In this document: piece after piece, positions 5,069 to 41,229 of the stretch
Layout of the letters: every line of letters begins with the position of its first letter
Position numbering within the stretch: position 1 is the stretch's first letter
Source of the DNA: a virus
IMG/VR virus record: IMGVR_UViG_3300033233_000061
Location: 1-46,285 of that record
Length of the DNA: 46,285 bases
Direction: 5' to 3' (one strand)
The notes under the pieces: model-generated
What the model was told of the DNA's origin: nothing
What the model saw: the letters and a program-made list of their open reading frames with translations, nothing else
Databases searched by the model: none
Position numbers and translations under genes: made by a program

Positions 5069-8000
5069 TTAGCCGTATAGAGAGTTGTACCAATAGGAGA
5101 TGGTGTTGCTGCCCTGGTTCGTGCTGAACCTGATTTGCAGGGCCATGCTGTTCCAACCTCCTGCCCACTGTAGTTGTATCTGCCCATTGCCAGCATAGTT
5201 TGAACTATTACCCGTTATGAACGTCCCACCATAGGTATTGCCGGCAATCCAGTAACCGATGCTGTGCACGCCGCTTATGGCAAAGTCAGCCCATACTTCG
5301 TACATTTGGTGGCCATTTAGACCGGAAACGATGTTGTACCAGTTGCTGTCAGCGGGGCAAGTACCGCTGTAGTAACCACGCCGACGATAAGCACTGAGCG
5401 TACCTGTTGCTCTAATATCTCCCGCGTTAGCTGTAATAATAGAAGTAGTACCAACGCTCAAACCGCCTGCAACTGCGAGATTCATGGATTGAAATAGAGT
5501 CATGCTTGGAGTGCCACTAAACGGTACATCTATCTGCGCCCAAGTTGTAGAGGTTCCAGAGTATGCTCCCTGAAAATACCAATAAGCATGACTTGTAGAT
5601 GCATTCCAATCAACTCGAAGCTCATTAAAGTTGCTTGAATCTTGCAATGCTCTAACAATCGTACTTGCTATCTGGCCAGAGCCATAATTTTCGCTGGCAA
5701 GATACATCACGTTCATAACAGGGCTACCACCAGTACTCATTCGTAGCTTGCCAATTGTGCTTGAGCCAGTTACAAAATCGAGATACCCATAGGATAGACT
5801 GCTTGGCACTGAAATACTGATACGGTTTTGATCGAAAGTAACGCTTCCTCCTGCACAATATGCCTTTCCGTCTGATGTTTGCAGGTAGAACTGCTTCGTA
5901 TTACTGCTGTTGTAGCCCTCGATACCGTTGTTGTTGATCTCGACACGGCTGCTGCCAGGGGTGCCGACTAGCAGTTTTCCATCGGCACGATAGAACTCGA
6001 AGTCGTCCAGTACGATTGTGCCGTTGGCGTCCGAACGGACCGTGGCCGTGACTCTGGCATAGGCCGCATTACTGGGCGCCTGTGCGACAATAGCAAATTG
6101 CTGGTACGTACTTAAGCCACCATAGAAATTGGAGAAGCCGATGGTGCCCCTGGCGGCAGTCAACCACTCGATGAAGCCGCCGCCTGAACCGCTTGGTGCT
6201 GTCGCCAAGGCGGCCCAGCAACTAGCGTAGTAGTTGAGTCCAGGCGTTACAGGGAATTCTTGGTAGCATAGCGAGTAGTTGTTAACGCCGTCTCCCGCCC
6301 CAACAAGCGCACAGGTGCCACTATGCGCGTCACCCGCCGTCGTGCTGATCCAGCTGTGAGTCAGGTACGTCCAGTCAGCAAACGTACCTGTCTCGAACCC
6401 AGGGTTGCCCAGCATGTTGGCACCATGGGCGTTGAACTTGTCGGCGGTGACGGTATTGGCCTGAATCGTGCCGCCATTGATGTAGGTCGTAGAACCATAC
6501 TGCCAGCCGTGGACGTAGCTGGCTGGCGTTCCGGCGATGTCACCGTTCGTGATGTAGACGTCGCCCTTGACGATCAGGTTGGAGCCATCCCACTTCCATC
6601 CCTTGGCGATGTCTCCGCCACTGATCGTGCCAACGTGCATCTTGTAGAGAGTATCGCTATCTCTACCAGCCCAAATGCCACTTGCGCTCAGGTAGCCCGA
6701 CGGTGCCGGGTTGCCAATGCCCATGTAAGGGTTGGTGCCAGGTTCGAGCTTGATGACCTGCGCGCTGCCATCATACAGATGGATCGGCAGGTTGTGGCCC
6801 TCGAGGAACTGGTTGCTCAGTCGCAGATACCTGTTCGCAGTGGCAGTGCCGTCGCCGGCGTACAGGCCATACTCGTTGGTGCTGCCAAACAGACCGCTGA
6901 GGTTGCCGAACCTGGCCCTTGTGATCGTGTCAGCGGCAGGGTGGGTTGACCAGGTCGCAATCTGAGCATACGGCGAGTTCGCCGCCCATAGACCGTCTAT
7001 GGCGTTGACCTCGTAGAACCCATTGCCAGCGGTGCCGTAGTCGAGCACCTGCGTCTTGGCGTTGATGGTGCCGCTGGCGATGCCGGCATTGCTGCCAGTC
7101 GAGCGGGTGAACGTCCACTTCTGCGTGCCGTTGGCCTGGTCTACGTAGTTGCTGACGGTGCCCCAGGCGTCGCCAATCGTCAAGCTGCCGGCACTCCTGG
7201 TGTACTGGCGAAACCGGACCATGTCGCCAGACTGGAACACGGCCTGATCCGGTACGCCCGGCAGGTCTTCGACATAAAAGTCGGCGCTGTTGCCAGCGGC
7301 CGGCAGGACAAAGTCGGCAGCCAGCACGGCCACGCTCTTGCAAATGATCTGCTCACCGGCCAGCGCCTGTTCAAGGTCAGCGATAAACGCCTTGGCGTGC
7401 AGCTCGTTGCTGTACAGATAACGGAAGTCGCCCTGACCGTCGTAGGTGATGCGCCAGCCAGTCGTCTGTGAGGCGTAGCCGTCGCTCTGCAGGGCCACGC
7501 CGTTCGTAGCCTTGACCAAACCCGACCCAGGGCTGAGCAACAGGTCCAGCGCCGGCTGTATCGTGAGCGAGGTACCGGCTTGCGAGTCGAGCAGCGACGT
7601 ACGCAGCCGGTCGGACAGTTCCAGTTTGTGCAGCTTCAGATCGCCAGAACCATCAGACTTCAGCAGATGCCCTGGGTAGACGCTGCCGTCCGAGTATGCT
7701 GTGACTGCGTGAGTGTGGTTGCCAGCACTGCTGTTGATGCTGGTGGAACTCAGCATGCCAGGCGTGGTCAGCGCAACGTCATCAGCATTGACGGTGATGC
7801 CGGCCCCAGCGCCAACGTTCAAGACGCCGGCGTTGTAGGTCAGGCCGGCGCCAGCAACAGACGAGGATAGGGCCACGTCATCGGCATTGACCGTGATTCC
7901 CAGGCCCGCCCCAACCGCTAGAACCTTGCTGGTGATCGTCAGCCCAGCCCCTGCGACTCCGTCGGCCAGGTCCAGCGTGACGGTGCCGTTAGCGCCGCTG

Positions 8001-20584: not shown

Positions 20585-22370
20585 CTTCGTCGTCCAGTTC
20601 GAGCGATATGGCGCATCGGCAGTTGTGGACTATGATGCTATTGCAGGTGTACAATGGTGCTAGGTAACATTGGAGGTCATAGACATGTCCAGAGTACTGC
20701 CGCGTTTCGACGTGGCTGATGCGGTCCGTTGCTATGTTGCCGGAGAATCCGAGTTGTCCTTGTCTAAGCGCTTGCATGTTGACCGTGGCACTATCCGCCG
20801 CCAGCTTCTCAAGAACGGCGTTGCCCCCAGAAACGGTAGCCAGGCTAACCTGTTGCGCATGGCTCGGCTTAGTCCCGAAGAGCGCGCTGTACTCACCGCT
20901 GCCGCCCATGATGCTGCTCGTGGCAGGCAGGCCTCCTTCGAAGAACTCTGCAAGCGCGCTCAGAGCAACGAGCGCTGCCTGTTCCGTGCTACGCCCGTAG
21001 AGACTGAGTTTGCTAGTGGCTTGCGCCATCGCGGCTTTGATGTTGTTCAGCAGAAAGCGGTTGGGCCCTACAACGTTGATGTAGCTATCCAAGAACCGCC
21101 CATCGCCGTGGAAATCTTTGGCGGTGGCTGGCACACGACGGGCTCTCATGCCAGGGGCTTTTACAAGCGCACCAAATATCTCCTCGATAGCGGCTGGCAC
21201 GTGCTCATAATCTGGGTAGATGGACGCCGCTATCCCCTCGGGCCTGGTGCTTACGATTACATTGTCACCTTCGCGCAAGAGCTTCGCTGCTTTCCAACCG
21301 GTCAGCGTCAATACCGGGTGATTCTCGGTAACGGCCAGCCATCGGCCCGCGTCCGTTCGCACTTCAATGATTCTGCCGACGTAATGCGACTCGAAAGCAC
21401 CGACTAGCCCTGGCCCAGCAACGACGTTACCAGGCAGAATGCAGTTGGTGTGGGCTGGTGGTCCGTCAGGGAACTCATCGGCCCACTCTGATTCTGGCTT
21501 CTTGTCGAGCGGCCCACAGATCGGGCAAACCAGTTCATCACCGGCGGTATTCCAGATGCGGTGCATCTTCAGCCCATACTTGGCCAATTCCGCCTGTTGC
21601 TCGTTCGTGGCCTCGGCGTATGCCTGGGTGACTTCGGTCGTGGCAATTGCCGACGCCCTGGCTTCGCCAAACGTGGGTTCCAGCAAGTCGAGCAACTGCT
21701 GTCGCTTCATGCCAGGCGTGGAGAGGTACGTGCTGACCGCCTCCTGGATTGCCTTGCGCGTGGTCGCCGAGACCTGGCTGACTGCCAGGCCGCCGTGCTC
21801 CCTCGCCCAAGCGACGGCACGCTCGTTCGCAACGGCATGATCCCAGTCAATGCCAACCGAGTGACCGATCGCCTCCAGCTGTTCGGCCATGACAGCGGCC
21901 AGCTCCGGTTCGAGCGTGGCCTTGAGGGCCGCCTCATACGCCGCCCAGTCGGGTTCGCGGCCGGCCATAATGTCCTCGACTATCTCGTTGTGGTAGGCGG
22001 CAAACACGTCCTGGGCCAGCGCGCCACCAATACGCGCTTCGTACGCCGCCCGCTCTTCGGCCTGCTGACGGAGCAACTCCGCCGGCGTGAGTCGTGGTGG
22101 CCGCTTAGGGGCCGCTTTCTCGACCTTGTGTCCAACTGCGTCGTCCGGTGCATGCTCAGCAATTGGCAGCAGCGTGTCGAGATCCTCAGGGTCAACCAAC
22201 GGCTTCCAGAACCATTTGGTGACAGCAGCCAACAGCAGCGCCCGTGCCTGCTCGGCAGTGACCGGCTTAAACCGCTGGTCCACAGCCCCATCAACTATCA
22301 CGTGAACGCGGCCCCGGCTGTCCAAGCCTAGATATGCATCACCTGTTTCGCTCTGGGCTAGCCGCTTCAT
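20577..22370 (-). CDS. MuF head morphogenesis protein with intein
   Basis: The precursor is 597 residues from ATG 22370, which overlaps the portal stop as ATGA (a GTG at 22379 is possible). Residues 1-309 and the last 14 form the MuF extein: a helical minor capsid protein with IATTEVTQAYAEA, DELVCPICGPLD and the terminal PPAHTN-CRCAISLEL signature. A 274-residue intein (310-583) splits that signature exactly before the first Cys of CRC. The spliced product would be 323 residues, a normal MuF length. MuF proteins sit near the portal inside the head. The gene overlaps the portal before it and the neck protein after it. Confidence 0.9.
   Translation of the reverse strand: MKRLAQSETGDAYLGLDSRGRVHVIVDGAVDQRFKPVTAEQARALLLAAVTKWFWKPLVDPEDLDTLLPIAEHAPDDAVGHKVEKAAPKRPPRLTPAELLRQQAEERAAYEARIGGALAQDVFAAYHNEIVEDIMAGREPDWAAYEAALKATLEPELAAVMAEQLEAIGHSVGIDWDHAVANERAVAWAREHGGLAVSQVSATTRKAIQEAVSTYLSTPGMKRQQLLDLLEPTFGEARASAIATTEVTQAYAEATNEQQAELAKYGLKMHRIWNTAGDELVCPICGPLDKKPESEWADEFPDGPPAHTNCILPGNVVAGPGLVGAFESHYVGRIIEVRTDAGRWLAVTENHPVLTLTGWKAAKLLREGDNVIVSTRPEGIAASIYPDYEHVPAAIEEIFGALVKAPGMRARRVPATAKDFHGDGRFLDSYINVVGPNRFLLNNIKAAMAQATSKLSLYGRSTEQAALVALSALAEFFEGGLPATSSIMGGSGEYSALFGTKPSHAQQVSLATVSGGNAVLEKLAADSATVNMQALRQGQLGFSGNIATDRISHVETRQYSGHVYDLQCYLAPLYTCNSIIVHNCRCAISLELDDEDA
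20622..21443 (-). mobile_element. Intein in the MuF gene
   Basis: The 274-residue element starts with Cys (CILPGNVVAGPGLVGA, block A), has block B TENHPVLTLTGWKAAKLL with the TxxH pattern, block F-like GHVYDLQC, and ends SIIVHN followed by extein Cys (block G). All four splice-junction residues are present, so splicing should work. The centre lacks LAGLIDADG or HNH motifs but has a TAKDFHGDG motif. Instead of an in-frame nuclease, a homing endonuclease gene lies antisense within the central part. Insertion at the conserved CRC motif of MuF is a typical intein choice of an essential site. Confidence 0.9.
20685..21407 (+). CDS. HTH-Vsr-like homing endonuclease, antisense in intein
   Basis: The 240-residue product starts at ATG 20685 with GGAGG eight bases upstream. 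Residues about 8-45 are a helix-turn-helix (DVADAVRCYVAG ... LSKRLHVDRGTIRRQLLKNG). Residues about 105-200 are a Vsr/DUF559-like PD-(D/E)xK nuclease: GPYNVDVAI (Asp132), PIAVEIFGGGWH (Glu143, His150), then YLLDSGWHVLIIWVD and YDYIV. It is the only plus-strand gene of the phage and lies wholly inside the intein DNA, with codons in exact register to the sense codons. It contains no TTA, CTA or TCA codons, which would be stops in the intein. It should cut intein-free MuF genes to spread the element. Confidence 0.85.
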   Translation: MSRVLPRFDVADAVRCYVAGESELSLSKRLHVDRGTIRRQLLKNGVAPRNGSQANLLRMARLSPEERAVLTAAAHDAARGRQASFEELCKRAQSNERCLFRATPVETEFASGLRHRGFDVVQQKAVGPYNVDVAIQEPPIAVEIFGGGWHTTGSHARGFYKRTKYLLDSGWHVLIIWVDGRRYPLGPGAYDYIVTFAQELRCFPTGQRQYRVILGNGQPSARVRSHFNDSADVMRLESTD

Positions 22371-25300
22371 CCGTTCCACGGCTTGCGCTCCACAACTTCA
22401 CCTTTGTCCGTCATCCTGGTCACTACTAGCTCCTGGCCAACAACTTTGGCGTCTTTGGTATATGACCAGTGGAACCCGGCCTCGCTCGTTGCCCGCAGGA
22501 TGGCTGCCGGCGGCTTCTGGTAAAAGTGCACATTAGCATCGCGCGGTATTGGGAACCGCCCGCCATCGTTGGTCACGAGCTGCGCCTCTACGTACCGGTC
22601 GAGCGTAGCATTGCGTGCAAGGTCACGGGCCATGCCAGATGCTTGTCCGTACTTTGCCAGAACGGCAGCGCGCTCGTAACGCAGAACGGTGCTTACGTCC
22701 TCTTCGGATACTGGTTCATGCCAAGCTTCGAATGAATCACCGGCGGTAAATGAGACATGCCCAGAAACAGATTCGATAGGGAAGCTGATGGCAACGTCAC
22801 CGAAAACGGCGCCAGCACCCTCGCTGCCGCTGCCGGCCAACGTTGCGTACCCATATACTGGGTTCATGCCGGACAGGCCCATGCGTTCTTCAGCCGCCTG
22901 CCTATCGTCTGCATAGCCTTTCCAGCGACCGTAGCCGGGCTTATTCTCTAGGTGCCAGTAAGAAGGCAACCCATTTTCGAGATTGTCGGCCAAATATTTG
23001 CTTCGGGTCTGTACGGTTATTTGAACGCCAGTGTCTGGCACTTGCTTTGCCAGCCGGTCCAGCTCTTCGCGGCTTACACCTGCCTCTTTTGCCAGACGGT
23101 CGGCAATTGCCTCGACACTGGCAGCGCTTTTGGACTGGACGCGCTCGGTATAAGAGCGAACCTTTTCGCTCTGACCGCGCAAAGAGCCAGGCTTATCGTC
23201 TGCTGCAGCGCCGCCCCCAGGTGCACTCCCACCAACCTGCCCAGGACGTCCAGCGTGGCCAAAGTTGCCACTGCCTGGACCGCCTTTTGCGATCTCCTCG
23301 GCCTTGCCCATGCCGTCAAGCGTGGACAGCAACCCGTTGATACGCTTCTCAGTCAGCGCCGCTGCTTGCTCACCGACAAGCTCTTTGACACGCTGCCAGC
23401 GCCGGTCCTGGGTCAGCCCCTCTAGCTTGACTAAGAGACTCATGCTGAACGGCCTCTCGCCCCAGGCAATGACAAACGGGCTGGATGGCGCATGCTCCGT
23501 CGCCGGAAAGGTCAGGCCGTTATCTATGAGCACTGGACGTCCAGGATCGTCTGGATGGGTCAGCCAGTTGCCAGAATGCCGGTCGAGATTGCAGAGCACT
23601 GTATCGAGCAGCGCCGCCTTCTCAAGCCAACGTTCCTGGTACTCAGCGACAGGCTTGGCTGGATCGTTGCCAGGAACGTAGTACAGGACGGCACCGCGCT
23701 CACCATCCAGGTCGCTCAGGTAAGCGACGGGAACCAGATACAGCCCCAACATGCGGTCGATCAGGTACGCCGCCTCCTCACGGCAGCCCTGCCAACCACC
23801 AATGCGCCGGATCAACCCCGGATGTTCACCATCCAACGGCTTCCACAACGCCGGCCGCTCCGGTAGGCCGACCGGCTTGATGGTGACGATCTCAACATCG
23901 TTGCGATGGTGCCCCAAGAGCGGCACGGGAACCGCCTGCTCGACTGGGCTGCCATAGTAGAGATCATCCTCTAGATCCACGCCCAGAACTTTGGTAACCG
24001 GCGTCGGGGACTGGAAAGGAGGACTGGAACCAGTCCCCGACTCACCGGTGGCAGGAGGTGCGGGAGGTGTCTCGGTTGGTTGCGGCGCCGGCTGGGTCAG
24101 TGCCTGCGAGATATTGATTACTTGCCCGCCCTGGACAGTCAGCAGAACATCGCCACCATCAACAGGGTCGTAGCCCAGCGTGGAACGGGCTTCATTGAGC
24201 TTGACGAGGCCGGCGTTGAACTCAGCGATAACGGCATTCTGGGCCTCTTTCGGGTCGAGTGTCTCCTGCGGCAGCTGCAGGTCGAACTTGACGTCCTCAA
24301 CGCCGAACTGGGTCAGAACATCGTTGAAGGCGCTGCAGACGTAGGATTTGAGTGGGCCTAGCGCCATGCGGTAGAACGTCTTGTCCATGACGTCCATGAA
24401 CCCACGGCCGCCCAGCCCCTGACCAGGCACGTTGCCAAACTCGGTCTGTGGCAGACCGAACGCCAGGGCGACGTTCTGCAACGCTTGCTTGTACAGCGCC
24501 TCTGGAAAGTCAGCTTTCTTGAGCACGCGCATGTTGCTGAACCCTGGCGGCAGGAACCGCACGCGCATACGCTCAGCGGCGCCGGAGGACATGCGGGCGT
24601 TGAACTGCTCTTCGTAGTAGGCAATCTGCTCCAGGCTCGCGCCCTCTGGCGCCTCAACCACACCTTCGGGCAGATTGCCCTCACGGTAATGCGCCAACTC
24701 GAACCCGGTGATGTTGGCGATCGTCAGGATCCACGGCCAGGCCTGCTCAATCGGTGTGCGACCGTAGGGTGCATCGTAGCGACGGAACCGTGGCTTGTAC
24801 CAGACGGCCTCTCTCGTCCACCACGAAAACGGCATGCCCTTAATGACCTGGCCATAGGCAGGTGCGGGCGGTTCTGGCGTCCGACCGTGCTCATCGACGA
24901 ACAGCAAGATCGTGCTGCCGTCCAGGAAGTGCAGCCCCTTGAGCTCCTCGCCATCGCGTTCGATATAGAACGCGCCAGCATCGAATACGAGAACGGACTG
25001 CAGAAAGCGCGTCAGCCAGACGGCCCAGGGCGTGACGCGGTCGGGTGATTCGGTCAGCCAGACGTAGGAGTGATCGTCTGCCGGGTTGCCGTCTTCGTCA
25101 ACGAGTTTGGGCTCGAAGTTACCCATCTCACGTATGAGCGTGAAGACACACATATTGACTTCGGCGACGGTCTCGTAGACGCTGGCCAGCGCTGAGAACG
25201 GCATAAGTCCGTAGGCGGTGCGCGGCACGAGCGTGACGTTGACCGCCATGGGATAGTCGATCTCGCGCGGCAGCTCGTCCTCGTACGGATGCACTGCCGG

Positions 25301-27135: not shown

Positions 27136-27520
27136 CCTCTGCCCGCTCTACAATATGCTCGACAATTCGCACCCGCAAGGGGCCGGCCTCAGGGCCAGTC
27201 AGCTCGGTGCTCTCCGTCCAGCCAGGCTCCCCCGGTCGCTCCCGACCTGGCCCATAGCGCAGCCACTTGAAGGCGTCGGTCTTGCGCACTTCAACCTCAG
27301 CAGCCAGGCGCGCCTGAGCCCGAGCGTGCTGGACCTCAGTACGAAACGTACGATAGGGTTCGTTCTCCGGTCCGGGTCGCTGCCCGCGTGCCATCCAACG
27401 CCGGAAGGTAAGAGGATCAATCCCTGCTGCTTGCGCTGCCACCCAATCGTAGGCGCCAGCGCGGATATAAGACACGATCGTCGCCTGTGTCTCTGGAGTG
27501 AGTTTCGTTGCCCTACCCAT
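27074..27520 (-). CDS. terS: Terminase small subunit
   Basis: A 148-residue protein from ATG 27520 (a TTG two codons earlier has a better-placed GGAG). Residues about 1-45 form a helix-turn-helix (TKLTPETQATIVSYIRAGAYDWVAAQAAGIDPLTFRRWMARG), the centre is a helical oligomerisation part (RTEVQHARAQARLAAEVEVRKT), and the tail is very acidic. This layout is typical for small terminases that recognise the packaging site. The gene overlaps both neighbours. Confidence 0.85.
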   Translation of the reverse strand: MGRATKLTPETQATIVSYIRAGAYDWVAAQAAGIDPLTFRRWMARGQRPGPENEPYRTFRTEVQHARAQARLAAEVEVRKTDAFKWLRYGPGRERPGEPGWTESTELTGPEAGPLRVRIVEHIVERAEDADEDSDDVAETSGEEEGQG

Positions 27521-28364
27521 TGTCAACCAACTCCGGCTGTAAGCCCATATCAGACATGCGTTCTAGAGCGACGGCAACATATTTAGGTTCCAACTCCATG
27601 CCATAACAGATGCGGCCTGCTTGCTCGGCGGCAACCATCGTCGTACCGGAACCAAGAAATGGATCAATAATCAACCCTTTTGTCCGGCCAATCAAATCTA
27701 CTAGAAGCTGCATCCCATAAGGCGGATCAGCAACTATGGCATCTGCCTTTCGCCCACCCATCAGCCGCGCCATATCCTCGGCCTTGGTGCTGTCGCCACA
27801 CATTACCCGGTGGCGCCGATCAAGCACAGTCAGACTTGGTATCTCCCACACTTGGCCGAGCTGGACTTGCCATTTCTGCTGCAACTCTTCGGCGCGATCA
27901 ACGTCTGCCTCTGGACCGTCGCCCAATTCCGCCCCGCTGTACTCTAACCCGTTCTTCTTGGCAAGCTCCGCCAGCATTGCTTGCACGCCAGCGCTGCTCG
28001 TTTCCACGTCGCGTAGCAGCTCGTCGAGCTTGCCCTTGTCGGCGACTGCCATGGCGCTGAGTGGATCTAGCGTCGCCAGAATCAGCGCTTCCTCGCGTTC
28101 GTCGAGATCAACGTAGAGCACCGGCACCAGCGGCTCCTTACGCCGCATGGCTAGGCTCACACGCAAATGGCCGTCTATGACAACGCCTGACCGTTGGTTG
28201 ACCACAATTTGCTGCACCCAGCCGACTTCGTCCAATACACCTTCGAGCGCCTCCTGTTGCGCCTTGGGGTGAATTCTCCAGTTAGCAGGGTTAGCGCACA
28301 GCTGCTCCGGGTCTTCCTCGCCAACGCCAACTATGCGGTTCCGCCAGGCCTCTTTGGTTACCAC
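27513..28364 (-). CDS. ParB-like domain fused to truncated DNA methyltransferase
   Basis: The 283-residue protein has a ParB/Srx-like N-terminal domain (residues about 20-120: LCANPANWRIHP, VVIDGHLRVSLAMR) followed by the ends of a beta-class amino-methyltransferase. DPPYG (213-217) and DPFLGSGTT (234-242, the SAM-binding loop) are both present but only 16 residues apart, where functional relatives have roughly 100 or more. The target-recognition region is missing, with a continuous frame and no stop. It is probably an inactive relic kept for its ParB part, or a minimal SAM-binding protein. It starts at GTG 28364. Confidence 0.8.
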   Translation of the reverse strand: MVTKEAWRNRIVGVGEEDPEQLCANPANWRIHPKAQQEALEGVLDEVGWVQQIVVNQRSGVVIDGHLRVSLAMRRKEPLVPVLYVDLDEREEALILATLDPLSAMAVADKGKLDELLRDVETSSAGVQAMLAELAKKNGLEYSGAELGDGPEADVDRAEELQQKWQVQLGQVWEIPSLTVLDRRHRVMCGDSTKAEDMARLMGGRKADAIVADPPYGMQLLVDLIGRTKGLIIDPFLGSGTTMVAAEQAGRICYGMELEPKYVAVALERMSDMGLQPELVDNG

Positions 28365-29366: not shown

Positions 29367-30088
29367 CAGCAGTTACCCTGCCGCTCTTCGCCACCGTTAC
29401 TGGGAGGCATGTAACACATGGCCTGGTTGGCAGATTCGTAGTAAGGCGGGTAGTAACCCCAAAACACCTGCCGTATTCCGGGTGCTACCAGTCGCTGCGT
29501 CTCTGACGTCACCGGGACCGATCGCTGCGGCACACCGGCAACAATGACACTCTTGTCCTCGCTCATCTCTTGCACTTCCCATCTGAGAACCCGACCCCAA
29601 CCGTAGACACGCTTCTTGCCAATTGCCGCGATCGTCGCCAACAGGTCTTTGATAGCAGCAGCATCACCAACTGCCCACCAGCGGACCCAGGGCGCAACAC
29701 GATAGAAGACTGGCATGTGGTACGCCTTGTAACGCCCCTTGCTGGTCTCGATCCGACTTACAGCAACATCCAAGAGGTCGGTATGCTTGCCCGAGTCCTC
29801 ACGCTTGTTCCAGTAATCGCGGCCCTCAGCGAAAGGCCGGCCCCACTCAGCAAACGAGCAGGCGTAATAGCGATAGTCACCGTCGTAGACCATCAGCAGG
29901 GGAAGCGTTGGCGCCATCATCTCTCTCGAAAGGGCAGCCAGCGAACCCTGTCCAGGGATGCTTGCCTCTGGCTGGCCATTGAACTGGCGGCGGCACGCCT
30001 CGTAGAGCAGTATGCCGTCCAGCGGCAGATACGGGTCAGAGATGACGCCACAACGAAGCCAAGCGGTGATACAGATTGGTCTAAACAT
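29366..30088 (-). CDS. csf3: Type IV CRISPR Cas5 subunit Csf3
   Basis: A 240-residue RAMP-fold protein, last gene of the Cas operon. The start ATG 30088 overlaps the cysH stop by eight bases. The N-terminus MFRPICITAWLRCGVISDPYLPLDGILLYEACR and the glycine-rich loop GKKRVYGWGRVLRWEV (residues 157-172) are hallmarks of Csf3, which in type IV complexes caps the Cas7 backbone and would hold the 5-prime end of a guide RNA. It also contains an aromatic centre (HMPVFYRVAPWVRWW). No Cas6 gene lies nearby, in line with subtype IV-B. Confidence 0.8.
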   Translation of the reverse strand: MFRPICITAWLRCGVISDPYLPLDGILLYEACRRQFNGQPEASIPGQGSLAALSREMMAPTLPLLMVYDGDYRYYACSFAEWGRPFAEGRDYWNKREDSGKHTDLLDVAVSRIETSKGRYKAYHMPVFYRVAPWVRWWAVGDAAAIKDLLATIAAIGKKRVYGWGRVLRWEVQEMSEDKSVIVAGVPQRSVPVTSETQRLVAPGIRQVFWGYYPPYYESANQAMCYMPPSNGGEERQGNC

Positions 30089-30881
30089 AGATCGCCAGCT
30101 TCGGGAATTCGGCTACCAGCCGATTCCACAATCCTGGGTCGAGACGCTTCAGATAAGCGTAGCGGCCAAACCCAACGGCGGCGGCACCGAGGACTGGAGC
30201 AATCCTCATCTCCTTGCGATCAAGCCCTAGCGCCGCCATCTTGTCATATGCCGGGTTGTACGGTACCTGGAATGTGGCCAGGTAGGCCCAAATATCGTCA
30301 ACGCTCCAGAAGGTGAGCGGGCAGAGATGCCAGGTGCCATCCTCCTGGCAAAAATAGAACTCGCCCTTACGCAGAGCATTGAAATGCCGACCAGTGCTTT
30401 CGTCTGCCCGCAGGCCAATCGCAACGGTCTCCAGGCTGAAGCGCTGGACAAACTCGGCTGAGGGCTCCTGGATCAGATGCTGGCCGAAATTGAACTCCAG
30501 GTCCGGCGTGCTAGTTGGGTGGCCCCAATAGCCGCCCTGGCGACACATTTCAAGCAGTGATGGCTTGGCAGCAATCACCGTGACGTTGGCTGTGGCGGCA
30601 ATGAACTCGTACGTGTCACCAAGCTGGGCACCATCATCGAAGAACGCCGCCGGCGCCTCGGGGACAATCGAGCGGACAAGATGCAGCAACACCGTGCTAT
30701 CCTTGCCGCCCGAAAAGGCGACGCCGATTGGGCCTGCCAGGGCAGCTTTTTCAATCAAACGCTTGGCCCGTTCGACCCTGCGCCTGAAAGAAGCAAGCTG
30801 CCCCAGCAAGCAGTCCGCCTTGCGGACTACTTCTCCTGGCCGCGTTTGTCGGCCATATCTCACCTCCTCATTGCATAGCAT
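30081..30881 (-). CDS. CysH-like PP-loop protein of type IV-B locus
   Basis: A 266-residue member of the PAPS reductase/ATP pyrophosphatase superfamily. The PP-loop is SGGKDST (residues 57-63), followed by FFDDGAQLGDTYEFI, AIGLRADESTGR, CPLTFWSVDDIWAYL and YNPAYDKM. This gene is a well-known companion of type IV-B CRISPR loci, where its job is unproven; the related DndC protein works in DNA phosphorothioation. It overlaps csf2 by 14 bases and csf3 by eight. A strong AGGAGGTGAG precedes a short out-of-frame ATG, so the exact start is unsure. A role in real sulfate assimilation is unlikely in this context. Confidence 0.9.
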   Translation of the reverse strand: MLCNEEVRYGRQTRPGEVVRKADCLLGQLASFRRRVERAKRLIEKAALAGPIGVAFSGGKDSTVLLHLVRSIVPEAPAAFFDDGAQLGDTYEFIAATANVTVIAAKPSLLEMCRQGGYWGHPTSTPDLEFNFGQHLIQEPSAEFVQRFSLETVAIGLRADESTGRHFNALRKGEFYFCQEDGTWHLCPLTFWSVDDIWAYLATFQVPYNPAYDKMAALGLDRKEMRIAPVLGAAAVGFGRYAYLKRLDPGLWNRLVAEFPKLAIYV

Positions 30882-33641: not shown

Positions 33642-34524
33642 GGCTGTCACCCCTCTGGAAAGACTTCACCACACGACTACTGATAGTCTGCGTGCTGCGC
33701 GGCACAAGCCGACTGCGGCCACTACCAGCCATGCGTGCAATGGCTGCCCACGGCATACCTTGCTGGGAGCACCGACGCATGAACTCCATACCATCCGCAC
33801 CTGGCTGCCAATACCGGGCACCGAACCAGCCCCGCCGGATCAACTTGGCCAGCCAGTCCACATCGTCAGCGTGCAGCAACCAGTTTGGCCATCGCGTTGT
33901 CCGCACGTGCGCACGCATGGCCCACCTCAGGGCTGCAGCCTCGTCTACCTTCCAAATTGCCGCTGCCTCTCGTAACGTCAGCCAGCGGTGAGGGCGCCAA
34001 TAGCGCCGGGCGAACCGGCGCAAGGTCTCATCGCGGAAACGGTCCGGATCGTAGCAAGGGAAATTCTGCTCGGCCTGCAGGAATGCCAGCAAGTTGATCC
34101 GTGGCACGCGCCAGATAGTGTGTCCACCGCCAATGTCGCAGCAGCGCTCAGGCCGCAAGCGCCCAGCTTTTACTAACAGAGTTGCCGAGCCATCCGGCTC
34201 ACCCATTGCTCGTTCGATCTGCCGCAACGACAGGTACCGCCCCGAGCCACGCAAAGAGCGACGAGCGTGATCCTCCAGGCGTATGTGTACCGCGTTTGTC
34301 GTCCGCCCAAGTTCGCGAGCTAGCTCCAGCACGCTCATCCGGTCGGCATTCCGGCTGAGGAATTCATCTTCCTCTGCCGTCCAGCGTCGGGCCTTTTGAG
34401 CTCGCCGTCTGCCATGCAGTGCCAGCCAAGGTGGCAGACCGCGACGGCGAAACAGCTTTGCCGTCTGCAGCGATCTGTCCGCTGCCGCGATGGCATAGGC
34501 AACGTCAGAACTTGCCAAGGCCAT
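33634..34524 (-). CDS. HTH/SANT-like DNA-binding protein
   Basis: A 296-residue basic protein from ATG 34524, overlapping the ParB stop by one base. Residues about 45-85 (RRWTAEEDEFLSRNADRMSVLELARELGRTTNAVHIRLEDHAR in two parts) are a Myb/SANT-type HTH of the sort seen in phage GcrA-like or homing-associated regulators. A second, MerR-like segment follows (YLSLRQIERAMGEPD ... HTIWRVPRINLLAFL), and the third part (WLTLREAAAIWKVDEAAALRWAMR) resembles another HTH. It probably binds several DNA sites, as a regulator or replication accessory. Confidence 0.6.
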   Translation of the reverse strand: MALASSDVAYAIAAADRSLQTAKLFRRRGLPPWLALHGRRRAQKARRWTAEEDEFLSRNADRMSVLELARELGRTTNAVHIRLEDHARRSLRGSGRYLSLRQIERAMGEPDGSATLLVKAGRLRPERCCDIGGGHTIWRVPRINLLAFLQAEQNFPCYDPDRFRDETLRRFARRYWRPHRWLTLREAAAIWKVDEAAALRWAMRAHVRTTRWPNWLLHADDVDWLAKLIRRGWFGARYWQPGADGMEFMRRCSQQGMPWAAIARMAGSGRSRLVPRSTQTISSRVVKSFQRGDSHE

Positions 34525-35375
34525 TAACCTGCTCCTCCAACCTGAGCGAGAAACCGCAGAAACTGGGTCAGCGGGCAATCGTGGCAAATGTCCGCAAACC
34601 CACGGCATTCGCACTCAGCACATACCAAGCCCTTCGCCTGCTCCACTTCTTCCCAGCGTGGTGCGCGCTGAGTAGCCTCGGCTAGCGCACAAGCGGCGCA
34701 TGTGGCCCTGGTCGCCAAGCGGACGCCACTAGCTGTCAGTGTATGTGGCGCCACAGTCGCAGGAGCCTGTTGTGCCACACGGCGCTTGGCGAGGCGCACC
34801 ATTGCCTCAGTTTCCTTGGACGTCATTGCGCCCTCGATGACATTGCGGGCCATGGCGCGCATCTGCTCTTCACTTTCTAGGTTGGCAAGCGCTGCAGCTG
34901 CCTGCAAAGGCAGGCGTTTCTCGTCCACTTGCCTCTGCAGGTCATCGGGCAACCGGAGTAATGCCATTCGGTCCACGACAAAGTTCCAGGCTCTGCTCGA
35001 CACGCTGGCAATTTTCTGGATGCTCATGCCTTGAGCAGCCATCGACTGGAACAGCCGTGCTTCCTCTGTCGGCAACAGACTCTCACGAGCCACATTCTCG
35101 GCAGCAATGGTGGCCAGCTGGCCCAGTTCATCGAGATCGTCACGTATGAGGCACGGTACGGTCGCCATTTTCGCCATCTTGGCTGCCCGCCAGCGGCGGT
35201 GACCACAGATGATGACATATCGCCCGTCTGCCGGGGTGACAACCAGCGGCTCCAGAATGCCAAGCTCCTGGACCGACCGCATCAGCTGTACCATCTCTTC
35301 AGCCGGGTAGTCTCGGCGCGGGTTGTGCGGATGCGGGTCCAGAAGGCTAGTCGGGATGAACGTAATTGCTACCAC
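34524..35375 (-). CDS. ParB-like partition/nuclease-family protein with zinc finger
   Basis: A 283-residue protein starting at GTG 35375. The N-terminal ParB domain has LLDPHPHNPRRDYPAEEMVQLMRSVQELGILEPLVV (in two pieces), GRYVIICGHRRWRAAKMA (the CTP-binding GHRR motif) and ENVARESLLPTEEARLF. A central HTH (GMSIQKIASVSSRAWNFVVDRMALL) follows. The C-terminal 70 residues have CAAC, CAECEC and CHDC, a zinc-binding module not usual in ParB. No ParA gene is present, so it may be a DNA-sliding clamp for regulation or replication, or serve plasmid-like segregation with a host ATPase. Confidence 0.8.
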   Translation of the reverse strand: MVAITFIPTSLLDPHPHNPRRDYPAEEMVQLMRSVQELGILEPLVVTPADGRYVIICGHRRWRAAKMAKMATVPCLIRDDLDELGQLATIAAENVARESLLPTEEARLFQSMAAQGMSIQKIASVSSRAWNFVVDRMALLRLPDDLQRQVDEKRLPLQAAAALANLESEEQMRAMARNVIEGAMTSKETEAMVRLAKRRVAQQAPATVAPHTLTASGVRLATRATCAACALAEATQRAPRWEEVEQAKGLVCAECECRGFADICHDCPLTQFLRFLAQVGGAG

Positions 35376-39417: not shown

Positions 39418-40269
39418 CTACGCCACTGGCTCGTTGACGGCCCCTGGCGCTGTGATGATGTTGGTGTGCCCCATGATCGCCTGGACGTAGGGTTCGGATA
39501 TGGGCAGCCCTTCTAGCTGGCGCCACGTCACCCAGAGGTGCTGCAAGAATATCTTCACCATCTTGCGCCGGGCGCGGTTGTGGATGTGCGCATCCGTAAA
39601 GTCCCAGGAACGGGCTTTGCGATGGGCAGCAGGGTGGCGGCACTCTGTAGCTACGCAGGCACACTTGGTGCAGTATGGCTCAGGGTGCTGCCGCCGCTGT
39701 TCCGCCTTCTCTTCGTAGTAGATCTCGGCGTAGATAGGCGTCTGCATGCGGATGAACTCGTCACCGATCAGATACAGCAGTGACTTGAGCCGGCGGTTGT
39801 AGGGAAGAACCTGGCCCTTCGTTGGTGCATCTATGTGCCCGTCAATGACTGCGTAGCCGCAATAGCGCCACAGTTTGGAGACAGTGTCGAAACGACCAAT
39901 GTCATCGATCTGCGCCAAGAGCTGAGCAGCCATTTTCCCTTCGCTCAGTCCACGTATAGACGTGATCCATTCCCAGATTGGGCCAGTGGTGGCCTTGGCA
40001 GCCTTAATCATCTGCCGACGGGCTGATTTTAGGGCACTATCAAGCCCGAATCCAGCGCCTTTTGCCCCACGGCCAAACGTGTCTATGAAATCCTGCTCCA
40101 TACCAGCGTCCATCTGGCACACGCCGCGCTTGATTGCGCTAATGCGGAGCAAATGGCGCTTGCGCATTTCTTCAAGCTCTTCGAAGAAGAGATACTGCTG
40201 CCAGAGCATGGACAGCTTGTGGATCTTCTGCGGACGGTCGACTTCGGCTTCCTGCAATTCATCGGACAT
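39418..40269 (-). CDS. IS110-type Transposase_20-domain protein, no DEDD domain
   Basis: A 283-residue protein starting at ATG 40269 with TAGGAGG upstream. Residues 1-95 are a helical coiled-coil-like part; residues about 105-200 carry the Transposase_20 pattern of IS110/IS116: ISIRG-LSEGKMAAQLLAQIDDIGRFDTVSKLWRYCGYAV (in two parts), YNRRLKSLLYLIGDEFIRMQTPIYAEIYYEEKA. A Cys-rich insert (CTKCACVATECRHPAAH) and NRARRKMVKIFLQHLW follow. The N-terminal DEDD RuvC-like domain of IS110 enzymes is absent, and the usual QSG serine position reads PTKG, so it is unlikely to recombine DNA. It may be a domesticated DNA- or RNA-binding protein. Confidence 0.7.
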   Translation of the reverse strand: MSDELQEAEVDRPQKIHKLSMLWQQYLFFEELEEMRKRHLLRISAIKRGVCQMDAGMEQDFIDTFGRGAKGAGFGLDSALKSARRQMIKAAKATTGPIWEWITSIRGLSEGKMAAQLLAQIDDIGRFDTVSKLWRYCGYAVIDGHIDAPTKGQVLPYNRRLKSLLYLIGDEFIRMQTPIYAEIYYEEKAEQRRQHPEPYCTKCACVATECRHPAAHRKARSWDFTDAHIHNRARRKMVKIFLQHLWVTWRQLEGLPISEPYVQAIMGHTNIITAPGAVNEPVA

Positions 40270-40280
40270 TGGTTCCTCCT

Positions 40281-40686
40281 ATTAGCGCACTCATGATATG
40301 GGTTTCACCTTTCGGCTAGCTCGCACACTAAGGCTGGGTTCCACTCACTCTTTGGCTCGCACACGTCAGCTGGGTTTCACATGGTGAGTGGCTCGCACAC
40401 CCGGCTTGGGTTTCACGGCTCTTGTGGCTCGCACAGCAATGCTGGGTTCCACATGGCGAGTGGCTTGCACTCGAAGCTTGGGTTACACGAGCACCGTGGC
40501 TCGCATGCTTCTCTTGGGTTTCACTACTAGCATGGCTCGCACCTCGGGCGTGGGTTTCACCCGGCCAATGGCTCGCACTTGCTGCCTGGGTTTCACGCGT
40601 TCGATGGCTCGCATGTAGGGCATGGGTTCCACAGTGGCCGTGGCTCGCACCGCTCAGCTGGATTTCACTAGCCGCCTGGCTCGTCT
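40281..40686. repeat. Array of 23 ten-base boxes at exact 18-bp spacing
   Basis: Box A (TGGCTCGCAC) and box B (TGGGTTTCAC) alternate, each separated by exactly eight variable bases, giving a 36-bp unit and an 18-bp half-unit. Twelve A boxes start at 40281 and every 36 bp to 40677; eleven B boxes start at 40299 and every 36 bp to 40659. A and B share the pattern TGGSTYKCAC. All 22 eight-base spacers differ. The array lies in a 420-bp gap without genes, directly upstream of the Transposase_20-like gene. It has the look of a protein-binding array such as iterons or a centromere; the spacers are far too short for a CRISPR array. Confidence 0.9.
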
Positions 40687-40689
40687 CGG

Positions 40690-41229
40690 TTATGCCATTT
40701 CCACTTCTGCCTGTACTGCCAACTGGGCTGCCAGCTCGTCAAGCTTCGCCTTGAGAGCGGCTATTGTTGCTAGCACGTCCCCACCGCTGGCGGCAATGAC
40801 TGCCAGCCGTGGCCGAGCGTGCCCGATGAGCGTCTTCAGCAAGTACTCCTCTACCCTGGCTAGGGCGTCTGGATCACTGCTTCTTACATACCCTGTGTCC
40901 TCTGTCGTTCCGCCGACGAAATCAGGCACGTCAGCTTTTCGCCCGGACCCTAGGATTATCTCCGTCGTGCACTTGTTCGCTTCGTTTATTATCTCTTCGG
41001 CCACGCCCATGCGCAGCATGATCTTGTTTGGTGGCAGGATGTCAGCCGGTGCAGTGCCAACCTCCCTTGCTGCCACTAGCATTGTCCCTATCTCGCTGGC
41101 GGTCATCTTACGGTCCGCCATTATCTCAAGGGCCTCTTTCATGCTCGCCACCGGCGGCAGGTTCCGCGCCTTACGAGCCTCATTCCAGTCGGTGACGTCA
41201 ATCGTTAGTACGACCTGCTGCTCAGCCAT
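40690..41229 (-). CDS. Hypothetical protein
   Basis: A 179-residue protein starting at ATG 41229, preceded by AGGAG and GAGGA. The N-terminus is beta (VVLTIDVTDWNEARKARNLP), the centre helical (MKEALEIMADRKMTASEIGTMLVAAREVG), and the C-terminus is a coiled coil (IAALKAKLDELAAQLAVQAEVEMA). It lies between the single-strand annealing protein and the 18-bp array. No family is recognised. Confidence 0.6.
   Translation of the reverse strand: MAEQQVVLTIDVTDWNEARKARNLPPVASMKEALEIMADRKMTASEIGTMLVAAREVGTAPADILPPNKIMLRMGVAEEIINEANKCTTEIILGSGRKADVPDFVGGTTEDTGYVRSSDPDALARVEEYLLKTLIGHARPRLAVIAASGGDVLATIAALKAKLDELAAQLAVQAEVEMA

What the first reader, a model, noticed from the sequence alone, without database searches (positions are those of the whole stretch)
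40281..40686. Unusual 18-bp-period array of alternating ten-base boxes
Twenty-three boxes of ten bases (A: TGGCTCGCAC, B: TGGGTTTCAC) alternate with exactly eight variable bases between them over 406 bp. The spacers are all different while spacing is never broken. This is strong selection for boxes and for phase (36 bp is also a multiple of three). It could be an iteron origin, a centromere for the ParB-like protein, a binding site for the Transposase_20-like protein, or a repeated RNA (GTGAAACCCA-N8-GTGCGAGCCA units on the minus strand).
Basis: seen in the sequence. Interest (0 to 1): 0.85.

Follow-up and report, generated by a model that had tools for sequence, protein, structure and literature searches.

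The report
Phage TIGR array with TasA protein
The striped DNA stretch is a store of eleven short two-part guide RNAs next to the gene for the protein that carries them, a phage copy of the recently described TIGR-Tas RNA-guided DNA-targeting system, here of the type that lacks a DNA-cutting domain.

Summary
At 40281-40686, ten-base boxes of two kinds alternate every 18 bp with variable 8-base spacers: 21 full boxes plus a half box at each end. In 2,000 dinucleotide shuffles no 18-bp register held more than 4 boxes; the real one holds 21. It is not an iteron origin or centromere. Read on the minus strand it is a TIGR (tandem interspaced guide RNA) array: 10 edge repeats (GUGCGAGCCA), 11 loop repeats (GUGAAACCCA) and 11 predicted 36-nt dual-spacer tigRNAs. 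The gene directly downstream (39418-40269) passes NCBI's TIGR-Tas model (168 bits, cut-off 100). Its predicted fold best matches the solved TasR and TasH complexes, but it lacks their N-terminal nuclease, so it is a TasA. About 40 other viral contigs carry the same design; all 44 arrays within 1.5 kb of a tas gene are co-oriented with it. TIGR-Tas was published in 2025 (PMC12045711), so this is a new member of a known kind. Beyond that: a conserved small gene upstream in five phages, 36-bp units that reshuffle between near-identical phages, no self-targeting, and an unannotated array in an isolated Microcystis phage. No natural target was found.

The parts
40281..40686 (-). TIGR array: 10 edge repeats, 11 loop repeats, half edge repeats at both ends, 22 spacers of 8 nt, 11 tigRNA units; transcript reads from 40686 towards 40281
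   Evidence: sequence; shuffles; same design in about 40 other contigs
40677..40683 (-). 5' truncated edge repeat CGAGCCA, start of the array
   Evidence: sequence; [quoted passage not shown] seen in many relatives
40286..40290 (-). 3' truncated edge repeat GUGCG, end of the array
   Evidence: sequence; same GTGCG ending in many relatives
40646..40681 (-). predicted tigRNA 1 (36 nt: AGCCA, spacer A GGCGGCTA, loop GUGAAAUCCA, spacer B GCUGAGCG, GUGCG); tigRNA k lies 36(k-1) bases lower
   Evidence: inferred from published processing inside the edge repeat; not shown by RNA data
40286..40321 (-). predicted tigRNA 11 (last unit, spacers GCCGAAAG and TATCATGA); its 3' end lies in the 5' leader of tasA
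   Evidence: sequence; processing inferred
40299..40668 (-). the 21 full repeats: loop repeats (consensus GUGAAACCCA) at plus-strand starts 40299 + 36n, n = 0-10; edge repeats (GUGCGAGCCA) at 40317 + 36n, n = 0-9
40275..40280 (-). AGGAGG ribosome-binding site of tasA, directly after the array's end
   Evidence: sequence
39418..40269 (-). tasA: 283-aa Tas protein, solo Nop domain, no RuvC or HNH nuclease
   Evidence: NCBIfam NF052498.1 168.2 bits, cut-off 100; PDB profile hits 9mty TasR and 21kl TasH; AlphaFold2 pLDDT 88.4; Foldseek best hits TasR and TasH
40690..41229 (-). 179-aa protein of unknown function, stop codon 6 bp before the array's half edge repeat; relatives in four other phages also lie directly before the array and tasA
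   Evidence: moderate-confidence model without a fold match

Best explanation
The stretch is a TIGR array of a phage TIGR-TasA system. It is transcribed on the minus strand, probably together with the gene before it (40690-41229) and with tasA after it, since there is no convincing terminator in between. By analogy with published systems, the precursor is cut inside each edge repeat into eleven 36-nt tigRNAs, each with two 8-nt spacers held by box C (CCA) and box D (UG) motifs. A TasA dimer binds one tigRNA; spacer A pairs with one strand and spacer B with the other strand of an adjacent DNA site, which is unwound and sharply bent. Because this Tas lacks a nuclease domain, it most likely binds and does not cut: it would block transcription or replication of competing DNA (other phages, plasmids, the host) or serve as a guided DNA-bending factor. 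Shown here: array anatomy, family and fold of the protein, missing nuclease part, conserved neighbourhood and polarity. Inferred from relatives: processing, dual-strand pairing, binding without cutting. Unknown: the targets.
For: Array anatomy fits the published rules: two alternating repeats, UG and CCA motifs, short spacers, half edge repeats at both ends, array next to tas. The inner pair that marks edge repeats is kept in 504 of 520 edge repeats (469 C-G, 35 U-G) and only 117 of 598 loop repeats; edges were picked by similarity to CGAG, which favours this. The protein passes the TIGR-Tas model, as do all 24 aligned array neighbours. Profile search of the PDB finds TasR 9mty (E 2.7e-65) and TasH 21kl (E 3.6e-35), aligning to the part after their nuclease domains; Foldseek ranks TasR and TasH 1-11. 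One protein family occurs in 37 of 42 array contigs and, apart from some extra arrays in multi-array genomes, sits beside the array or a gene or two away; 44 of 44 arrays near tas are co-oriented. Between phages whose Tas proteins are about 98% identical, spacers move mostly as A+B pairs: 35 kept pairs against 11 half-only matches, as expected if the 36-nt unit is functional.
Against: No RNA or binding data exist for this phage. Repeats are 10 nt with 8-nt spacers, at the short end of the published range. No terminator follows the array, unlike the typical published arrays; the tasA ribosome-binding site follows instead. No target was found in own genomes, held contigs or scans of IMG/VR.
Confidence: 0.9

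Rival explanations
1. A DNA-level array: iterons of a replication origin or a centromere bound as duplex by a phage protein (ParB-like, ATPase or the Tas protein).
For: Regular phased boxes in an intergenic gap; ParB-like genes occur in this phage; TasA loci are sometimes operonised with a ParB-like gene.
Against: Boxes carry the tigRNA box C and D motifs, edge-type repeats keep an internal RNA pair, arrays are co-oriented with tas in 44 of 44 cases, up to six arrays occur per genome, spacers shuffle as 36-bp units, and relatives process such arrays into RNA. The ParB-like genes here are not next to the array.
Confidence: 0.03
2. A TIGR array whose guides act on RNA, or a regulatory leader that controls tasA, and not a DNA-targeting system.
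For: The array directly precedes the tasA ribosome-binding site; no nuclease; Nop proteins of box C/D snoRNPs act on RNA; no DNA target found.
Against: Characterised Tas proteins use DNA, and TasR did not act on RNA substrates. In 25 of 44 cases the array lies after tas and not before it. Spacer diversity is not needed for a leader.
Confidence: 0.06
3. A translated repeat protein (hexapeptide repeats).
For: 18 and 36 are multiples of three and two frames are open over much of the array.
Against: Frame-breaking 17-, 19- and 20-bp steps in related arrays; the open plus-strand frame opposes the neighbouring genes; no sign of coding conservation in the spacers.
Confidence: 0.01

Closest known systems
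TIGR-TasA systems (Faure et al. 2025, PMC12045711), for example Flavonifractor plautii FpTIGR
   Same: Dual-repeat array next to a solo Nop-domain protein without nuclease, in phages and other mobile elements
   Different: Here repeats are 10 nt with 8-nt spacers, the array sits before tasA without a terminator, and a small unknown gene (40690-41229) precedes it
TIGR-TasH of Salicola phage CGphi29 and TIGR-TasR (PDB 9mty; TasH 21kl, 9w04)
   Same: Same Nop fold, same UG and CCA box motifs; SpTIGR also has 16 nt of spacer per tigRNA
   Different: The window protein lacks the N-terminal HNH or RuvC nuclease
TIGR-TasA with TasParB (fig. S14 of the same paper)
   Same: TasA operonised with a second protein and arrays with 10-nt repeats
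   Different: The partner here (40690-41229) shows no ParB match in Pfam, PHROGs, NCBIfam or Foldseek; the phage's ParB-like genes are elsewhere
IS110 transposases with bridge RNA
   Same: Homologous Nop-type RNA-binding domain (weak Transposase_20 hit; IS621 and ISCro4 hits)
   Different: No DEDD catalytic domain, no transposon; an array of many guides in place of one bridge RNA

Membership tests
TIGR-Tas (dual-repeat) | Alternating edge and loop repeats of 8-12 nt with short variable spacers | tested here: met
   10-nt repeats, 8-nt spacers, 36-bp unit
TIGR-Tas (dual-repeat) | Repeats start with UG (box D) and end with CCA (box C) in both edge and loop repeats | tested here: met
   Window sequence; in 52 non-redundant arrays the box C and D columns are conserved in both repeat types (boxes were picked by these motifs with one mismatch allowed)
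TIGR-Tas (dual-repeat) | Edge repeat has an extra inner base pair, loop repeat is A-rich | tested here: met
   504/520 edge repeats pair (C-G or U-G), 117/598 loop repeats; loop core AAAC or AAAA. Edge assignment by similarity to CGAG favours this
TIGR-Tas (dual-repeat) | Array begins with 5' truncated and ends with 3' truncated edge repeat | tested here: met
   CGAGCCA at 40677-40683, GUGCG at 40286-40290; also in many relatives
TIGR-Tas (dual-repeat) | Rho-independent terminator after the array (typical, not obligatory in the paper) | tested here: not met
   None between array and tasA; matches in the region at chance level. Arrays upstream of tas are also described in the paper
TIGR-Tas (dual-repeat) | Adjacent Tas protein with Nop domain | tested here: met
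   NF052498.1 above cut-off; PDB profile and fold matches
TIGR-Tas (dual-repeat) | Processing into 36-nt tigRNAs bound by Tas | not testable with these tools
   No RNA data
TIGR-Tas (dual-repeat) | Dual-strand DNA targeting by spacers A and B | not testable with these tools
   Target searches found nothing above controls
TasA subtype | Solo Nop domain, no HNH or RuvC | tested here: met
   Alignment starts at TasR residue 111 and TasH residue 65, no Pfam nuclease; 283 aa, mostly helical Nop-like model
TasA-TasParB operon | ParB-like gene in the tasA operon | tested here: not met
   Neighbour 40690-41229 has no ParB match; ParB-like genes lie at 34524-35375 and 27513-28364
Iteron origin or ParB centromere | Repeats bound as duplex by a Rep or ParB protein | not testable with these tools
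   No binding data; gene-polar orientation and RNA-type features argue against

The most novel reading that the evidence does not exclude
The small protein at 40690-41229, seen directly before the array and tasA in five different phage contigs, is a dedicated second component that gives nuclease-less TasA its activity (for example a DNA-binding, silencing or processing partner), making a two-protein TIGR subtype that is not described.
Probability: 0.25. Interest if true: 0.6.

Novelty: new member of a known kind. Interest (0 to 1): 0.38.

Why it matters
The role of nuclease-less TasA, the natural targets of TIGR arrays and the way arrays gain spacers are stated open questions. This locus and its relatives add material: a recurring gene before TasA, groups of near-identical phages whose arrays differ by reshuffled 36-bp units, evidence that the arrays do not target their own genomes, and an array in an isolated phage with a known host (Microcystis phage Mvi-JY20), where targets can be sought by experiment.

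Tried and rejected
Coding repeat: rejected. Known RNA family: none in Rfam. Self-targeting: 289 units against their own contigs, no exact match and no gap enriched over mispaired controls. Cross-targeting in 1.77 Mb of held contigs: one exact match, as in mispaired controls. Conserved unit AGCTCATC/TAAGTTTC in IMG/VR gave 47 of 60 hits at gap 2 and looked like a target, but other pairs peak at other gaps, and one peaks at gaps 1 and 4, that is in one reading frame. I therefore read the peak as codon-frame bias (K-F-x-D-E-L codons, stop avoidance) and dropped it. An 18-nt pattern from the Mvi-JY20 array found nothing in IMG/VR, and that array has no self-target in the first 100 kb of its 108-kb genome. 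Fold of the neighbour 40690-41229: moderate model, no match. No relative of the Tas in PLSDB plasmids. Four of the five genome-contig hits (L077-L080) are short tandem runs of A-type boxes without alternation, not TIGR arrays; only the Thermoplasmatota contig L081 is. A first peptide-pattern search for the Tas protein found no relative, probably because the patterns were too specific.

Full report
What was reported. The sequence confirms it: 11 boxes TGGGTTTCAC and 10 boxes TGGCTCGCAC (with a few substitutions) at exact 18-bp steps, and a half box at each end. In 2,000 dinucleotide shuffles of the same stretch no 18-bp register held more than 4 boxes; the real one holds 21. The window is a whole IMG/VR record of 46,285 bp, a tailed phage with most genes on the minus strand (terminase, portal, head and tail genes, sliding clamp, AAA ATPase). 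The array fills the gap between two minus-strand genes.

Related sequences. A pattern that fixes only TGG and CAC at 18-bp steps, and a second based on box A, found the same alternating design in about 40 other viral contigs and one contig binned with a Thermoplasmatota archaeon. Box A (core CTCG) is nearly invariant; box B varies between genomes (GTTT, TTTT, TTCT, GTTA, TACT). Steps of 17, 19 and 20 bp occur in some arrays, so the stretch is not translated. Several genomes hold two to six arrays. I fetched the contigs, called genes with a simple longest-ORF method and clustered proteins. One family, which includes the window's 39418-40269, occurs in 37 of the 42 array contigs. It is usually the direct neighbour of the array; in multi-array genomes some further arrays lie one or more genes away. 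All 44 arrays within 1.5 kb of it have the same orientation: the strand GTGAAACCCA-N8-GTGCGAGCCA-N8 is the coding strand of the gene.

Identity. The protein matches NCBIfam NF052498.1, 'TIGR-Tas system RNA-guided endonuclease', at 168 bits (cut-off 100), as do all 24 aligned relatives. A profile of the family finds TasR (9mty, E 2.7e-65) and TasH (21kl, E 3.6e-35) in the PDB, followed by IS110-type transposases. AlphaFold2 gives a confident model (pLDDT 88.4), whose eleven best Foldseek matches are TasR and TasH complexes. The alignments begin after the RuvC or HNH domain of those proteins and the window protein has no extra domain in front, so it belongs to the solo-Nop type, TasA. The word 'endonuclease' in the NCBI name does not apply to it. 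The family paper (Faure et al. 2025, PMC12045711) describes arrays of alternating edge and loop repeats of 8-12 nt with short spacers, starting with UG and ending with CCA, with half edge repeats at both ends, processed into 36-nt tigRNAs whose two spacers pair with opposite strands of a DNA target.

Anatomy by these rules. On the minus strand the edge repeat is GUGCGAGCCA and the loop repeat GUGAAACCCA. The array starts with the half edge CGAGCCA (40677-40683), six bases after the stop codon of 40690-41229, and ends with the half edge GUGCG (40286-40290), directly before the AGGAGG site (40275-40280) and ATG (40269) of tasA. That gives eleven 36-nt units, with spacer pairs GGCGGCTA/GCTGAGCG, CGGCCACT/TGCCCTAC, TCGAACGC/GGCAGCAA, TTGGCCGG/CGCCCGAG, TGCTAGTA/AGAGAAGC, CGGTGCTC/AGCTTCGA, CTCGCCAT/GCATTGCT, CAAGAGCC/AGCCGGGT, CTCACCAT/GCTGACGT, AAGAGTGA/GCCTTAGT and GCCGAAAG/TATCATGA. 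Across 52 non-redundant arrays the inner pair expected in edge repeats is present in 504 of 520 edge repeats (469 C-G, 35 U-G) but in 117 of 598 loop repeats. Edges were recognised by at least three matches to CGAG, which biases this count, but the 35 U-G cases keep the pair by a one-sided change.

What is different or new here. No terminator separates array and tasA, so the last tigRNA would be cut out of the tasA leader; this is inference. The gene before the array, 40690-41229, has relatives in four other array phages (G004, G014, G021, G029), each time directly before the array and tasA. It has no family match, its model is of moderate confidence without a fold match, and it is not recognisably the TasParB of the paper. 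In a group of contigs with near-identical tas genes (G005, G013, G020, G022, G023) the Tas proteins are 98-99% identical, yet arrays share only 2 to 7 of 8 to 13 units, in changed order, with point variants; A and B spacers stay together in 35 cases, against 11 half-only matches. Arrays therefore turn over by 36-bp units faster than the gene. An isolated phage with a known host, Microcystis phage Mvi-JY20 (PP438412.1), has a relative of this Tas annotated as hypothetical (XAI95461.1) followed by an unannotated array with 9-nt spacers that ends in a half edge repeat and a terminator-like hairpin with a T run.

Targets. No unit matches its own contig better than mispaired controls (289 units), nor other held contigs. 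Four pattern scans of IMG/VR gave hits whose gap distribution follows reading frame, so a first impression of a target (KFPDEL codons) was dropped. An 18-nt scan for a Mvi-JY20 unit found nothing. Natural targets remain unknown, as in the paper.

Verdict. This is a TIGR-TasA system in an uncultivated phage: a known kind, a new member. The mechanism by analogy is RNA-guided, two-strand DNA binding and bending without cutting; its purpose (blocking competitors, host control or help in recombination) is open.

Noticed in passing
L090:4791-5900 (PP438412.1, about 21367-22476): Isolated Microcystis phage Mvi-JY20 carries a tas gene annotated as hypothetical and an unannotated TIGR array (edge ATGCGAGCC, loop ACGAAACCC, 9-nt spacers) ending in a terminator-like hairpin; the annotated ORF 22294-22434 on the other strand is probably spurious.
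   Followed up: partly
L081:3896-5058 and 6373-6725: A contig binned with a Thermoplasmatota archaeon (GC 36%) has two long TIGR arrays (63 and 19 boxes) flanking a tas gene; possibly an archaeal virus or provirus.
   Followed up: partly
G002 (IMGVR_UViG_3300036863_000086) 44185-49547 and 67227-69073: A 72-kb phage contig with six TIGR arrays in two clusters (about 80 parsed tigRNA units) and mixed 8- and 9-nt spacers.
   Followed up: no
G038:27617-28618 and G039:21811-22812: The Tas protein of these near-identical contigs has an extra N-terminal part of about 100 residues (start DVKNYAVDWSHKTDKLAV) that looks like the RuvC domain of TasR.
   Followed up: no
window 27513-28364: A ParB-like N-terminal domain joined to a DNA methyltransferase-type C-terminal part; a second ParB-like protein lies at 34524-35375.
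   Followed up: no
window 30081-30881: Phosphoadenosine phosphosulfate reductase-like gene, a possible auxiliary metabolic gene or DNA-modification component.
   Followed up: no
G007, G026/G033, G027, G031 (protein cluster c9): A second family of roughly 215-270 aa proteins recurs next to TIGR arrays and tas in five contigs; it did not cluster with the window's 40690-41229.
   Followed up: no
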